A stretch of DNA of 28,892 bases from a virus. A model generated the notes under the pieces. It was given only the letters and a program-made list of their open reading frames with translations, was not told the DNA's origin and searched no databases. Of the stretch, positions 9,901-28,860 are shown piece after piece. Position 1 is the first letter of the stretch; the number at the start of each line of letters is the position of its first letter. Where the stretch lies: positions 1 through 28,892 of IMG/VR virus record IMGVR_UViG_3300028596_000052. One strand, written 5' to 3'. Made by a program: the position numbers and the translations under genes.

Positions 9901-11446
9901 GAGCCGACTCAAGGGGAATCGCCGACTCCGTCAGGACGTCGTCGAGGGTTCCCCGCATCTGATTGAAGGCGTTCCGCACCTGCGTGCTGCCCCGCAGGGC
10001 GAAGGCACCCAGGGCGATGAACGCACCGCCCAGTGCCGTGACGAGCAGTGCACCCAGTGCCTGGGCGATGGGGCCGATCAGGACCAGAGCAGCGATCAGG
10101 ATCGCCGTCCAGCGACGGTTGATGTTGATGACGCTGCCCATCTGGCGCAGCACACCCAGTAGACCGCCGACGCCGCGCACAGCACCGCGAAGACCGTCCG
10201 TCAGGCCGTCACCCATGCCTCGCATCGACCGGCGCATCAGACCGCCATGACGACTCGTGTCGCGGAGCCTGTGCTGGAAGATCAGCAGGCGCGAGTCGAG
10301 CCGGTCGAAGATGCTCCCGTCGTCACCCAGCAGCCGAAGCTGCGCCCGCAGGTAAGCGATCTCGCGGGAGGTGTCACGGAAGGCACCGCGCGTGAGAGCG
10401 CCTGCGCTACGGAGTCCGCGCGCTCCGTTCGCAGCCTGGGTCAGGCCACGAGACAGGGCGTTGAACTCACGCTGGCTCAGACGTCCGTTACGGGCAGCGT
10501 CCGCAAGCAGGCGGGACATCACGCGCAGGTCCCCGTTGAGAGACTGTGCCGTGCTGCGAGCCCGCGCGTTGCTCGTGCTGACGCCGTTCATGGCGTTGCC
10601 GACGGCCTGGAGTGCGCGGGCCATGCGGTTGAGGTCGTTGCCCCCCAACCCCTGGAACCGGCCCGTCATCCCCTCGTCGTTGTCCCCGATGCTCGCCAGC
10701 CGAGAGACGTGTCGACGGAAGTCGGCCTCTTCCTGGCGGAGTCGGGTGGCAACCTGTGCCGCAAGACGGCGACGCTCGGCTTCGGCGCGGCGGTTACGCG
10801 CCGCTTCCTCGCGGAGGGCAGCGGCGTGTGCTCTGTTGATGCGTCGCTGCTGGCTTACCATCTGCTGGCCGTGTGCCATCTGCTGACGCAGTTCTTCGCG
10901 ACGTGCCGCAGTGTTGCGACGTGCGTTCTCCCGCAGGGCGGCATCGTGTGCGCGGTTGAGCCGCTGCATGAGACTGACCCGCTGCTGGCCGTCGGCCATC
11001 TGCTGGCGGCGTTCTTCGCGCTGTGCCGCCGCAGCATCACGTGCCGCTCGCTGAGACACCGCGTTGTGGCGGCGGATCTCGTTGTCGAGCCGGTCGAACC
11101 CGAGCCGAGTTTCGTCGAGTTCGTCCCGGAGGCGGTGAAACTCGTCCTCGGTCAGCTCGCCCGCCCGCGCGGCCATGCGCAGGTCGCGGCTCAGCAACCC
11201 CATGGACCGGCGCATGTAGTCCATCTCGTGCCCGGCCAGGCTTCCGACGCGCTGCATCTGGCCGAGGCGTCCGGAGACGCCTCGGATGCTGCGGCTCAGC
11301 CGGTCGGCCCGGTCGGACGCGAGGTTGCTGGAGTTCGCCAGCCCACGAATGTCGCCGTCCATGCCCCGCATTCGCCGACGAATGTCGGCGAATTCTCCAC
11401 GGGTCATGTCCCGGACCCGGACAGTAAGAGTGATGTCATCAGCCAT
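6962..11446 (-). CDS. tail tape measure protein
   Basis: The longest gene of the window (1494 residues), as expected for the protein that sets siphovirus tail length. The N-terminus is long, charged and helical with coiled coils. It contains a tandem 40-residue duplication at about 143-222 (REERRQQMADGQQ and REELRQQMAHGQQ). A hydrophobic block follows at about 455-500 (TAILIAALVLIGPIAQALGALL), which could cross the host membrane at DNA ejection. Further on are two copies of a short repeat (AARDRLAGKKITI, AARNRLSNKSITI). The C-terminus has a second coiled coil (LEKAKEKLDGLKD) and ends GEVIIDPLRKSIRHRGGN. It overlaps the end of the frameshifted chaperone frame by a few bases. At roughly 0.15 nm per residue the tail would be near 220 nm. 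Confidence 0.95.
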   Translation of the reverse strand: MADDITLTVRVRDMTRGEFADIRRRMRGMDGDIRGLANSSNLASDRADRLSRSIRGVSGRLGQMQRVGSLAGHEMDYMRRSMGLLSRDLRMAARAGELTEDEFHRLRDELDETRLGFDRLDNEIRRHNAVSQRAARDAAAAQREERRQQMADGQQRVSLMQRLNRAHDAALRENARRNTAARREELRQQMAHGQQMVSQQRRINRAHAAALREEAARNRRAEAERRRLAAQVATRLRQEEADFRRHVSRLASIGDNDEGMTGRFQGLGGNDLNRMARALQAVGNAMNGVSTSNARARSTAQSLNGDLRVMSRLLADAARNGRLSQREFNALSRGLTQAANGARGLRSAGALTRGAFRDTSREIAYLRAQLRLLGDDGSIFDRLDSRLLIFQHRLRDTSRHGGLMRRSMRGMGDGLTDGLRGAVRGVGGLLGVLRQMGSVININRRWTAILIAALVLIGPIAQALGALLVTALGGAFIALGAFALRGSTQVRNAFNQMRGTLDDVLTESAIPLESALVGGMNQISGAARRMQPALTRVFASTAPLVKDFTGGLTDLFEYALPGFEQALSRSGPVMEGFRTAMGMLGSGLGDMFASMTEDGGAQGLKQVWETLGTELKNLLVNIGQFTNAMSQSATATALLVGVFRALSGVLHIVEGGMSFLDRMFGDVLSQITGSIGGVGKFEQRIDGLGGVFRTTAEDVDALKNKLAEVDVRIAKMKEARDSALAKGPKGDDFLASVGATDGDLNAALQEREGLVGAIADAEMRAASETRNHAGSVKELIGQIQALADLNRNYMDAQAAQEQAIADATKKQNKWGEALSWSNGQLERNGQAGRDAYEQLSNIARTTKEATDKAIEANAPWSQINERWKEGRASLISMADGWGLNKTQAQQLADQILGMPPSKEVFVKAETAGAINSLDGVIAAMEATPESETITVEALTGKAQKILEDLGYTVTRMPDGSFKISAEAGAASADIAAVQAARDRLAGKKITIAAATGSAVGNIARAQAARNRLSNKSITIIANTGPFRAAVGGIAGSIVGTAYINVQRRYDNSAAKPFGAQGGKASSLPMKRFASGGSISGQVLEGPGTKTSDGIIARLSRGEFVMRAAAVDKYGVDTMRRINLGMLPKFASGGSAAAKKMREARDDLVPYLTVSRFGQFAGSKNSEFISAMTKMDSRQDLVDDLNRMRTSIKKSTSGRTESRLLGQLDAAGKGLLKYQSKLTSVNKSLEKAKEKLDGLKDASSQLKDSIKQGIIGELNLTRSASREDSQVTLNTIMSQLTADSSRANQFTGMLETLKKRGFSGRVLEQVAQAGVEGGGLETATALMSASASQIKQINDMNQSIRQSADDAGDVAADALYAAGIKAAEGLVKGLERQKASIEKVMLNIAKSMEKAIKKALGIKSPSRVMQKLGHYTAEGFALGIEKNSRPEHAWTSMLNVPASSSGGASYAGGRSGEPMVIQLNIGGNSIGEVIIDPLRKSIRHRGGNVQAVLGK
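10781..11020 (-). repeat. 120-bp tandem duplication inside the tape measure gene
   Basis: Two consecutive units of 40 codons (about 10901-11020 and 10781-10900) encode near copies beginning REERRQQMADGQQ and REELRQQMAHGQQ and ending in NRAH-AALRE. Similarity is clear at the DNA level too, for example in the CATCTGCTG and GTTCTTCGCG blocks 120 bases apart. Gain or loss of one unit would change tape length without shifting frame. Confidence 0.8.
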
Positions 11447-22162: not shown

Positions 22163-22456
22163 ATGACCACGACCCTTGCCGACCTGCGTAAGCGCGCTGG
22201 GCTGTCGCAGTCCCAGATGGCGAAGAAGATGGGCGTGAGCAACACGCAGGTGAGCCGTATCGAAGCGAGCTATCCGGACGTCATGTTCCCGACGCTGCGC
22301 CGGTACATGGATGCGGTAGGCGTAGACATCCGGTTCGTCGGCGAAGGCGTCATCGACGACGTGTCCGACGAGGTGGAGAAGGATGTCTTCCGGTCCGCCA
22401 CGGTCGAGAACAAGCGCGCCGATCCGAGCCGTGGCTTCGGCCGCAAGAGCGCCTGA
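22163..22456 (+). CDS. XRE-family helix-turn-helix regulator (moron-like)
   Basis: A 97-residue protein with an XRE/lambda-Cro type HTH at about residues 5-50 (LADLRKRAGLSQSQMAKKMGVSNTQVSRIEA). The tail is charged (DEVEKDVFRSATVENKRADPSRG). AAGGAGACAAGCC precedes the ATG. It runs opposite to the late operon and sits divergent from portal with only 49 bases between, so it must have its own promoter there or within portal. Its stop meets that of the small membrane gene tail to tail. The layout is that of a moron gene: possibly a superinfection repressor, a HigA-like antitoxin or a late-operon regulator. No toxin partner is visible. Confidence 0.85.
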   Translation: MTTTLADLRKRAGLSQSQMAKKMGVSNTQVSRIEASYPDVMFPTLRRYMDAVGVDIRFVGEGVIDDVSDEVEKDVFRSATVENKRADPSRGFGRKSA

Positions 22457-26169: not shown

Positions 26170-26457
26170 GTGACCGTGACCGATATCTACACCAACGTCC
26201 CTGACGACGAGGATGTCCTGGAAGTCCTTCTGACGCCCCGTGAAGCGGCGGGTGTTCTCGGCGTCACCACGCGCACGCTGAACATCTACGCCGACAGTGG
26301 CCGGTTGCGCTGCACCAAGACGGCGGGCGGGCACCGGCGTTACTTCGCTTCCTCGATCCGTCTCGCGCACGAGGGTCAGTGGGAGAGTGCGGGCAAGGAG
26401 CCGACCGTGGGCGACTTGCTTCCGGAAGAGAAGCACGTCATTGTCCGCGAGGACTGA
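26170..26457 (+). CDS. BldC/MerR-like helix-turn-helix regulator
   Basis: A 95-residue protein starting at GTG 26170 with GGAG about 5 bases upstream (a second GTG at 26176 is possible). Residues 18-58, LEVLLTPREAAGVLGVTTRTLNIYADSGRLRCTKTAGGHRRYFASSI, form a MerR-type winged HTH with the TxGGHRRY wing found in BldC-like proteins and phage excisionases. There is no effector-binding domain. It is the first gene of the rightward operon and faces the regulatory region, so it may regulate both operons or act as a recombination directionality factor. No integrase is seen in the window. Confidence 0.85.
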   Translation: MTVTDIYTNVPDDEDVLEVLLTPREAAGVLGVTTRTLNIYADSGRLRCTKTAGGHRRYFASSIRLAHEGQWESAGKEPTVGDLLPEEKHVIVRED

Positions 26458-28151: not shown

Positions 28152-28625
28152 ATGGAAGACGGCCCCGCCCCCGAGGGGAGAGAGTCGAAGTACCGGCGGA
28201 TCGTTCGGCATTTCGAACAGGCCATCGACTGCGGCGACCTGATGCCCGGCCAGAAGGTGCCCCCTGTGCCGAGGATCGCCGAGACGTTCGACGTGGCCGG
28301 GGAGACGGCGGCCAGGGCGGTCCGGGAGCTGCGGGACAACGGGTACGTCCACACCACCGCGCACGGCACGTTCGTCCTCGACCGCATGAGGGTCGGCGTC
28401 GAGGTGCTGCCGTACTTACACCCGACCGGCTGCCGCTCCACGATCCACTGCGCCAACTTCGGTTTCTGTCACCGCTGTTCGCCGGAGCTGGCGCGGGCCT
28501 CCTCCTTCGCGCTCCTGGCGCTGAAGGAGGTGGGCCGGGAGTGGGACGGAGGGCTGTACGAGAAGGTGATGGTGACGATTCGCGACGGTATGGGCGATAT
28601 GTCGGAATCTTCTAGAGGGTCGTAG
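28152..28625 (+). CDS. GntR-type regulator with a Cys-rich C-terminus
   Basis: A 157-residue protein with AAGGAGACACG before the ATG. Residues 13-76 form a GntR winged HTH (KYRRIVRHFEQAIDCGDLMPGQKVPPVPRIAETFDVAGETAARAVRELRDNGYV). The C-terminal part is not a usual FadR or UTRA effector domain: it has CRSTIHCANFGFCHRC (Cys94, 100, 106, 109, with His90, 99 and 107 nearby), a possible zinc site, then a helix (ASSFALLALKEVGREW). It stands directly before an array of palindromes that could be its operators. Plausibly a phage developmental regulator. Confidence 0.82.
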   Translation: MEDGPAPEGRESKYRRIVRHFEQAIDCGDLMPGQKVPPVPRIAETFDVAGETAARAVRELRDNGYVHTTAHGTFVLDRMRVGVEVLPYLHPTGCRSTIHCANFGFCHRCSPELARASSFALLALKEVGREWDGGLYEKVMVTIRDGMGDMSESSRGS

Positions 28626-28665
28626 AGGGTGCAAAAATTTCGCGGGACCGCGCGCCAGGACCCCC

Positions 28666-28844
28666 GCTCATTTGAGCAAACTCCTGCTCGTATGAGCGCT
28701 CACATGAGCACCCCCTCCGCTCACATGAGCACCGCTCATATGAGCACCACCCCTCTCACGTGAGCGCTCACATGAGCGCACGCCGGCTCACTTGGTGTCA
28801 ACGCCGGTTGACGCTCAGTTGAGCATGGGTGTGCTCACATGCGT
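28666..28844. repeat. array of ten GCTCAnnTGAGC palindromes
   Basis: 12-bp palindromes start at 28666, 28686, 28698, 28719, 28734, 28754, 28766, 28786, 28813 and 28833. Six fit GCTCAnnTGAGC exactly, those at 28686 and 28754 have one mismatch, and those at 28786 and 28833 are degenerate on the right side. Starts are often 20-21 bases apart (two helical turns); two pairs abut exactly. No open frame with a ribosome site lies here. An operator cluster, partition site or iteron-type origin would all fit. Confidence 0.85.
28797..28812. promoter_or_regulatory. dyad GTCAAC-gccg-GTTGAC
   Basis: A perfect 6+6 inverted repeat with 4-base centre, between the eighth and ninth palindromes. It differs in sequence from the array unit, so a second protein may bind here. 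Confidence 0.5.
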
Positions 28845-28860
28845 GTGACGCACGTCACAC
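28843..28860. promoter_or_regulatory. CRP-like palindrome TGTGA-N6-TCACA
   Basis: GTGTGACG-CA-CGTCACAC is a perfect dyad, and 28844-28859 fits the TGTGA-N6-TCACA consensus of CRP/GlxR proteins, which are present in actinobacteria. It overlaps the end of the last array unit by a couple of bases. Binding is inferred from the match only. Confidence 0.5.

What the first reader, a model, noticed from the sequence alone, without database searches (positions are those of the whole stretch)
28666..28860. Dense palindrome array next to a GntR-type regulator
Ten GCTCAnnTGAGC-like sites in 180 bases, two pairs abutting and many starts separated by two helical turns, followed by a GTCAAC dyad and a CRP-like dyad. 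Such density goes beyond a simple promoter operator. It could be a cooperative operator for the adjacent GntR protein, a centromere-like partition site for a plasmid-like prophage, or a replication origin.
Basis: partly seen in the sequence, partly recalled or inferred. Interest (0 to 1): 0.72.

Follow-up and report, generated by a model that had tools for sequence, protein, structure and literature searches.

The report
Palindrome array before phage early promoter
A cluster of ten copies of one short mirror-image DNA word sits at the end of a fragment of a Streptomyces-type phage genome; related phages keep it, with the same spacing, just ahead of the promoter of their early genes, so it is most likely a multi-site docking strip for a still unidentified regulator of early transcription.

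Summary
Ten GCTCAnnTGAGC-like sites lie in 28666-28844: six perfect, two with one mismatch, one with two, one half-site. Shuffles of the same intergenic DNA give 0.02 sites with at most one mismatch (largest 2), against 8 observed.

The window is a 28.9-kb fragment of an uncultured phage from a ~100-kb group. In relatives G001, G002 and G003 the array occupies the same non-coding slot with the same 20-12(-20) bp steps. In G014 and G019 it is reduced to one site beside other 21-bp repeats. In all five a TA(G/T)ACTnGGG promoter-like motif and the early genes follow. The window stops before that motif. In G001 (102 kb) TANACTGGGG occurs only there.

Best reading: a dense multi-site operator or upstream activating array for early transcription, bound by dimers in helical phase (about 0.7). 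The cognate protein is not identified. The adjacent GntR-like gene does not travel with the array, and the motif lacks the usual GntR GT...AC core. Partition, packaging and origin readings are weaker.

Unexpected: relatives carry 5-32 host-type parS sites in their early regions, two encode ParA, and none of those searched encodes a recognisable ParB.

The parts
28666..28677 (.). site 1, GCTCATTTGAGC (perfect); first site of module 1
28686..28697 (.). site 2, GCTCGTATGAGC (1 mismatch); middle site of module 1
28698..28709 (.). site 3, GCTCACATGAGC (perfect), abuts site 2; module 1 = 28666-28709, layout 12-8-12-0-12
   Evidence: module aligned in relatives
28719..28730 (.). site 4, GCTCACATGAGC (perfect)
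28734..28745 (.). site 5, GCTCATATGAGC (perfect); first site of module 2
28754..28765 (.). site 6, TCTCACGTGAGC (1 mismatch); middle site of module 2
28766..28777 (.). site 7, GCTCACATGAGC (perfect), abuts site 6; module 2 = 28734-28777, part of a 54-nt duplication
28787..28798 (.). half-site GCTCACTTGGTG (3 mismatches), 21 bp after site 7
   Evidence: read from sequence
28797..28812 (.). second motif: GTCAACGCCGGTTGAC dyad; relatives have GCCGGTTCAC repeats in the same array
28813..28824 (.). site 8, GCTCAGTTGAGC (perfect)
28833..28844 (.). site 9, GCTCACATGCGT (2 mismatches)
28844..28859 (.). TGTGACGCACGTCACA: CRP-type dyad, or the stem of an intrinsic terminator (T-run follows to ~28870)
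28600..28656 (+). conserved element upstream of the array (TGTCGGAATCTTCTAGAGG...GGGACCGCGCGCC), shared with G001, G002, G014 and partly G003; overlaps the 3' end of the gntR-like gene
28152..28625 (+). GntR-type winged-helix protein, 157 aa, with C-terminal Cys-rich part; candidate but unproven binder
26170..26457 (+). BldC/MerR-type small DNA-binding protein; conserved in G001, G002, G014; weak match in G003; none in G019
22163..22456 (+). XRE-type regulator, conserved in G001, G002, G003, G014 and G019; another candidate binder

Best explanation
The array is a multi-site cis-regulatory element, an operator or upstream activating array, for the main early promoter of a ~100-kb Streptomyces-type phage group. 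Shown by computation: the 12-bp palindromes recur in the same slot in relatives, with fixed 20-12(-20) bp steps, immediately upstream of a TA(G/T)ACTnGGG promoter-like motif and the early gene block. Inferred: a dimeric protein binds each palindrome; neighbouring dimers contact each other along one face of the DNA (steps of 12, 20 and 21 bp lie near whole turns; steps of 15 and 26-27 bp swing the next group to the opposite face); and the filled array represses or activates early transcription, with the second motif (GTCAAC/GTTGAC) and possibly the CRP-type dyad as further inputs. The binding protein is not identified: the phage GntR-like, XRE-type or BldC-like protein, or a host regulator.
For: Density far above chance. 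The same slot (conserved upstream element, array, TA(G/T)ACTnGGG, early genes) in G001, G002, G003, G014 and G019. Steps 20-12-20 in G002 and 20-12 in G003, as in the window and G001. The motif TANACTGGGG occurs only twice in 102-kb G001, both just after the array. In G003 and G019 roughly 15-17 kb lie between the array and the terminase gene, yet the array stays beside the promoter motif. Mismatches in the arms are uncompensated, as for protein sites rather than RNA stems. Sites are confined to this one locus of G001 apart from chance-level singles.
Against: The window ends before the promoter motif, so its presence there is inferred from relatives. No binding protein, transcript or start site is shown. 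G014 and G019 keep only one perfect site, so the array turns over quickly or is not essential as an array. The spacing statistics were partly made after seeing the data.
Confidence: 0.72

Rival explanations
1. Same function, with the adjacent GntR-like protein as the binder: a cooperative operator through which GntR shuts the early promoter.
For: Adjacent gene; window and G001, which encode it, have the richest arrays. Compact palindromes suit GntR dimers. Its nearest solved relative is 1v4r; the same domain sequence lies in a GntR-family gene of plasmid pSN22 divergent from traA, where the intergenic DNA holds several AAGGTAC/GTACCTT copies, a multi-copy precedent.
Against: G002 keeps the array without a GntR domain; G014 keeps one site without it; in G003 and G019 the GntR genes are 7-13 kb from the array. 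The motif lacks GT...AC (PMC4494728). No site upstream of the gntR operon itself.
Confidence: 0.25
2. Same function, with a host regulator as the binder: the phage carries copies of a host operator so that early transcription responds to host state.
For: The same palindrome occurs in otherwise different phages (Dennebes, L024, L025, L028). Pairs exactly 32 bp apart, the site1-site3 distance of the phage module, are conserved upstream of WXG100 (esx-type) genes in about ten Streptomyces genomes. A CRP-type dyad lies in the window, Dennebes and L028.
Against: Only 9 exact sites in one 8.9-Mb Streptomyces genome against 3 for the control. The middle site of the phage module is absent upstream of the esx genes. 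No paper linking a regulator to this motif was found.
Confidence: 0.2
3. Replication origin: the palindromes are initiator sites like iterons, next to a long non-coding region.
For: Repeats at about two helical turns; about 1 kb of non-coding DNA follows in G001.
Against: In G001 the array is not at an extreme of cumulative GC skew and is only moderately AT-rich (0.42-0.45 against 0.36 on average). The phage has its own polymerase, primase and helicases, and no initiator gene is paired with the array. Sites lie directly upstream of a promoter motif.
Confidence: 0.1
4. Packaging site (terminase-binding array near the genome end).
For: In Dennebes one site lies 7 bp inside a terminal direct repeat of about 250 bp and others lie within 100 bp outside it. 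In L024 and L028 the pair precedes a terminase-like gene.
Against: In G003 and G019 the array is roughly 15-17 kb from the terminase gene but still beside the early promoter motif.
Confidence: 0.06
5. Partition centromere of a plasmid-like prophage.
For: Clustered sites; some relatives carry ParA and parS-like sites elsewhere.
Against: No ParB match in six records searched, no ParA or integrase in G001. The variable centre is unlike parS CACGTG. ParA-bearing G003 and G019 have the poorer arrays.
Confidence: 0.04
6. A structured RNA element (folded 3' UTR or leader) rather than a protein-binding DNA array.
For: The region folds much better than shuffles (z -7.55), with a terminator-like hairpin at its end.
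Against: Any set of repeated palindromes folds well. Arm mismatches are uncompensated and the 2-nt centres make poor hairpin loops.
Confidence: 0.05

Closest known systems
Multi-site operators upstream of phage early promoters (lambda OL/OR type)
   Same: Several closely spaced dyads next to an early promoter, helically phased, suited to cooperative dimers
   Different: About ten sites, with abutting pairs and a repeated 12-8-12-0-12 module; binder unknown; no immunity repressor recognised beside it
GntR-family operator arrays of Streptomyces conjugative plasmids (pSN22 TraR)
   Same: GntR-type winged helix (nearest solved relative 1v4r), and several repeat copies in one intergenic region
   Different: The plasmid copies carry GTAC (AAGGTAC/GTACCTT) and lie upstream of the regulator gene; phage sites lack GT...AC and lie 3' of gntR
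Mycobacteriophage cluster A stoperators
   Same: Many copies of one short repressor-type word in an actinophage
   Different: Stoperators are asymmetric and dispersed over the genome (own knowledge); here palindromic and clustered at one locus
RedRock-type phage parS loci (PMC7157519)
   Same: About eight repeats of one short word in an actinophage
   Different: 8-bp direct repeats linked to parA/parB; here 12-bp palindromes, no parAB

Membership tests
GntR-family operator | Palindrome with conserved GT...AC (PMC4494728) | tested here: not met
   Arms are GCTCA/TGAGC with free centre; no GT/AC pair
GntR-family operator | Cognate GntR gene found with the site across relatives | tested here: not met
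   Array without GntR in G002, one site without it in G014; GntR genes remote in G003, G019
GntR-family operator | Specific binding by the protein | not testable with these tools
   Needs EMSA or footprint
Phage early-promoter multi-site operator | Sites lie beside the early promoter and keep that place in relatives | tested here: met
   Met in G001, G002, G003 and, with one site, G014, G019; the promoter motif itself lies beyond the end of the window
Phage early-promoter multi-site operator | Occupancy changes early transcription | not testable with these tools
   Needs reporter assays and RNA-seq
Cluster A stoperators | Dispersed copies over the genome | tested here: not met
   Single cluster in window and G001
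parABS centromere of an extrachromosomal prophage | parA and parB linked to the repeats | tested here: not met
   No PF02195 in six records; PF13614 only in G003 and G019, far from the array
Bacterial parS | GTTTCACGTGAAAC core with CACGTG centre | tested here: not met
   Centre variable (TT, CA, TA, GT...)
Iteron replication origin | Initiator gene linked to the repeats, AT-rich unwinding element, skew change | tested here: inconclusive
   No skew extreme and no clear AT-rich element in G001; initiator and replication not tested
Terminase-binding (cosB/pac-like) site | Stays beside terminase gene or physical end | tested here: not met
   Not met in the window's group (roughly 15-17 kb away in G003, G019); Dennebes sites do flank its terminal repeat

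The most novel reading that the evidence does not exclude
The palindromes are copies of a host operator: several unrelated actinophages independently collected arrays of a Streptomyces regulator's site (the word that lies as a 32-bp pair upstream of host esx-type genes), so that early phage transcription is gated by that host regulator.
Probability: 0.15. Interest if true: 0.65.

Novelty: new member of a known kind. Interest (0 to 1): 0.42.

Why it matters
If right, it marks the main early-transcription switch of a group of large Streptomyces-type phages known here only from metagenomes, and supplies a ready, compact bait (the 44-bp three-site module) for finding the protein that controls it. 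It would also give a natural example of helically phased, high-density operator grammar. Should the binder be a host regulator, it would show how such phages read host physiology.

Tried and rejected
GntR as cognate by linkage: not consistent across relatives. GntR structure prediction without an alignment gave pLDDT 34.7, unusable, so no fold search was run. Sequence match to solved structures gave only GntR-type DNA-binding domains. pSN22 and pJV1 intergenic repeats read for the same word: none within 3 mismatches; GTAC-containing copies instead. sps palindrome of Streptomyces plasmids (PMC4170104) considered from the paper's description; its sequence was not compared. Looser pattern scans of IMG/VR for more arrays: 0, 2, 2 and 2 stretches; L186 is an AT-rich unrelated contig. 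L009/L015 are a satellite-like 12-bp tandem repeat, not operators. Actinobacterial chromosome hits of the pair pattern include sites next to a regulator reading-frame of SorC-like appearance and sugar-kinase-like genes; no SorC gene seen in the phage. Rfam on the G001 leader gave only sub-threshold eukaryotic families, treated as chance. GC-skew test for an origin: no extreme at the array in G001.

Full report
WHAT THE WINDOW IS. The window is a complete IMG/VR contig of 28,892 bases, with no integrase, ParA or ParB match. It carries a ThyX-like gene, tail and tape-measure genes, capsid region, terminase and, at the right end, a small rightward operon: BldC/MerR-type protein, DNA methyltransferase, small proteins, a PemK-like protein and a GntR-type protein. 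Nearest isolated phages share only the ThyX or endolysin genes at about 70-80% DNA identity, with Streptomyces phages. Terminase relatives in IMG/VR number 14, including two contigs of 102 and 104 kb (G001, G003) and one of 117 kb (G019). G001 has the same genes in the same order through the window's region, many at 80-95% protein identity, and overlapping ends, so it was probably assembled as a circle.

THE OBSERVATION. Eight sites have at most one mismatch. Chance gives 1.28 in the whole window and 0.02 in shuffles of the intergenic stretch. Part of the array is a 54-nt duplication.

CONSERVATION. In G001 nine sites lie at 94775-94944, in G002 four at 10831-10894, in G003 three at 58258-58301. 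The start-to-start steps are 20-12-21-15-20-12-47-20 (window), 21-12-20-26-20-27-20-12 (G001), 20-12-20 (G002) and 20-12 (G003, read in the orientation of its early genes). MAFFT aligns a three-site core, layout 12-8-12-0-12, in these four; G014 matches it only partly. The window has this module twice (28666-28709, 28734-28777). The middle site of each module is always the imperfect one. G014 and G019 have one perfect site each, beside repeats of another word, GCCGGTTCAC..., at about 21-bp steps in G019; that word also appears in the window (28797-28812) and G001. A random-placement test gave 0.001 for the window and 1e-5 for G001, but the accepted steps were chosen after seeing the data, so only G002 (3 of 3, 0.017) and G003 (2 of 2) count as partly independent.

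POSITION. In all five relatives the order is: conserved upstream element (weak in G019), array, TA(G/T)ACTnGGG, early genes. TANACTGGGG occurs at only two places in G001, 95014 and 95122, both directly downstream of the array. In G001 about 1 kb of non-coding leader follows before the first called early gene. In G003 and G019 roughly 15-17 kb separate the array from the terminase gene, yet the array stays beside the promoter motif. This is the main reason to prefer early-promoter control over packaging. The window itself ends 33 bases after the last dyad, before the promoter motif, so for the window the link to the promoter is inferred.

NATURE OF THE SITE. Arms are fixed and centres are free (TT, TA, CA, GT, CG and others). 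Where an arm changes, the other arm does not change to match, which fits a protein-binding DNA site better than an RNA stem, although the stretch folds well as RNA, as any set of repeated palindromes would. Phases on a 10.5-bp helix put most sites on one face and one group on the opposite face, in both the window and G001.

WHO BINDS. Not settled. The GntR-like gene next to the array is a real GntR-type domain (Pfam E 1.8e-8). Its best solved match is 1v4r, and that domain's sequence is found in a GntR-family gene of Streptomyces plasmid pSN22, divergent from traA; I take it to be pSN22 TraR (own knowledge). Against it as binder: the array persists in G002 without a GntR domain; GntR genes in G003 and G019 are remote; the motif lacks the family's GT...AC core (PMC4494728); no site lies upstream of the gntR operon. 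By eye, the helix equivalent to FadR Thr44-Arg45-Thr46 reads Ala-Gly-Glu in the window and Ala-Thr-Glu in G001, so altered specificity is possible. The XRE-type protein at 22163-22456 is the only one of the three small regulators with a clear relative in all five. A host regulator is possible: the same palindrome occurs in unrelated actinophages, and about ten Streptomyces genomes have a conserved pair 32 bp apart upstream of WXG100 genes, the distance between sites 1 and 3 of the phage module; but the match of distance could be chance (one of 26 allowed gaps), and one Streptomyces genome has only 9 exact sites (control 3).

ALTERNATIVES. Partition: no ParB match in six records, none of ParA or integrase in G001. 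Origin: no support from skew or AT content in G001, not excluded. Packaging: Dennebes sites flank its terminal repeat, but the window's group does not keep array and terminase together.

SIDE FINDING. Relatives carry host-type parS sites (GTTYCACGTGRAAC): G001 15, G003 32, G019 24, G014 5. One Streptomyces genome has 20, of which 19 lie on one contig, with a reversed-pattern control of 0 in every record. Many lie 11-30 bases before a gene start. G003 and G019 also encode ParA and a tyrosine recombinase. No ParB_N match was found in the window, G001, G003, G014, G019 or Dennebes; a divergent ParB cannot be excluded. Use of host ParB is a hypothesis only, but in my view it is more novel than the array itself.

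Noticed in passing
G001 (IMGVR 3300042934_000619), G003 (3300044694_000082), G019 (3300037518_000322), G014 (3300024287_000102): 5-32 copies per record of host-type parS (GTTYCACGTGRAAC) in the early regions, many 11-30 bases before a gene start; the same word clusters on one contig of a Streptomyces genome. No ParB_N match in these four, the window or Dennebes.
   Followed up: partly
G003:23080-23616 (-), G019:90915-91454 (-); G003:72241-72810 (-), G019:26046-26627 (-): Chromosomal-type ParA and a tyrosine recombinase in two relatives that also carry the parS-like sites; absent from G001.
   Followed up: partly
L059, L062, L077, L080, L083, L091, L095, L106, L132 (Streptomyces): A conserved pair of GCTCAnnTGAGC palindromes 32 bp apart in about ten Streptomyces genomes; in those whose genes were listed it lies upstream of WXG100 (esx-type) genes. 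No regulator known to me.
   Followed up: partly
L060, L085, L102: Pairs of the same palindrome next to kinase-like and regulator-like reading frames (SorC-like by appearance) in Bowdeniella, Dermabacter and Rhodococcus fascians; genes judged by eye only.
   Followed up: no
Streptomyces phage Dennebes OR253913.1, both ends (L029 1-345, L039 1-255): The record has a terminal direct repeat of about 250 bp; one palindrome lies 7 bp inside it and two within 100 bp outside. A perfect TGTGA-N6-TCACA dyad lies ~110 bp before a TATACTGGGG motif.
   Followed up: partly
L030 ~5287 (G001 leader): TTGAGAACTGAACAGCGTG in the long non-coding leader resembles the boxA-like stretch of actinobacterial rRNA operons (own knowledge); possible antitermination element.
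   Followed up: no
window:28152-28625 and G002:10159-10698: The C-terminal Cys-rich part (STIHC...FGFCHRCSPEL) is shared, while the N-terminal part is GntR in the window and unrelated in G002: a domain swap at the array's edge.
   Followed up: partly
window:27815-28138 (+) and L030:3621-3938 (+): PemK/MazF-like protein in the same operon (Pfam E 8.9e-9 in G001; weak, 0.0037, in the window), no antitoxin looked for.
   Followed up: no
window:22542-23456 (+): HNH endonuclease-like frame lying between structural genes on the opposite strand, a possible homing-type insertion.
   Followed up: no
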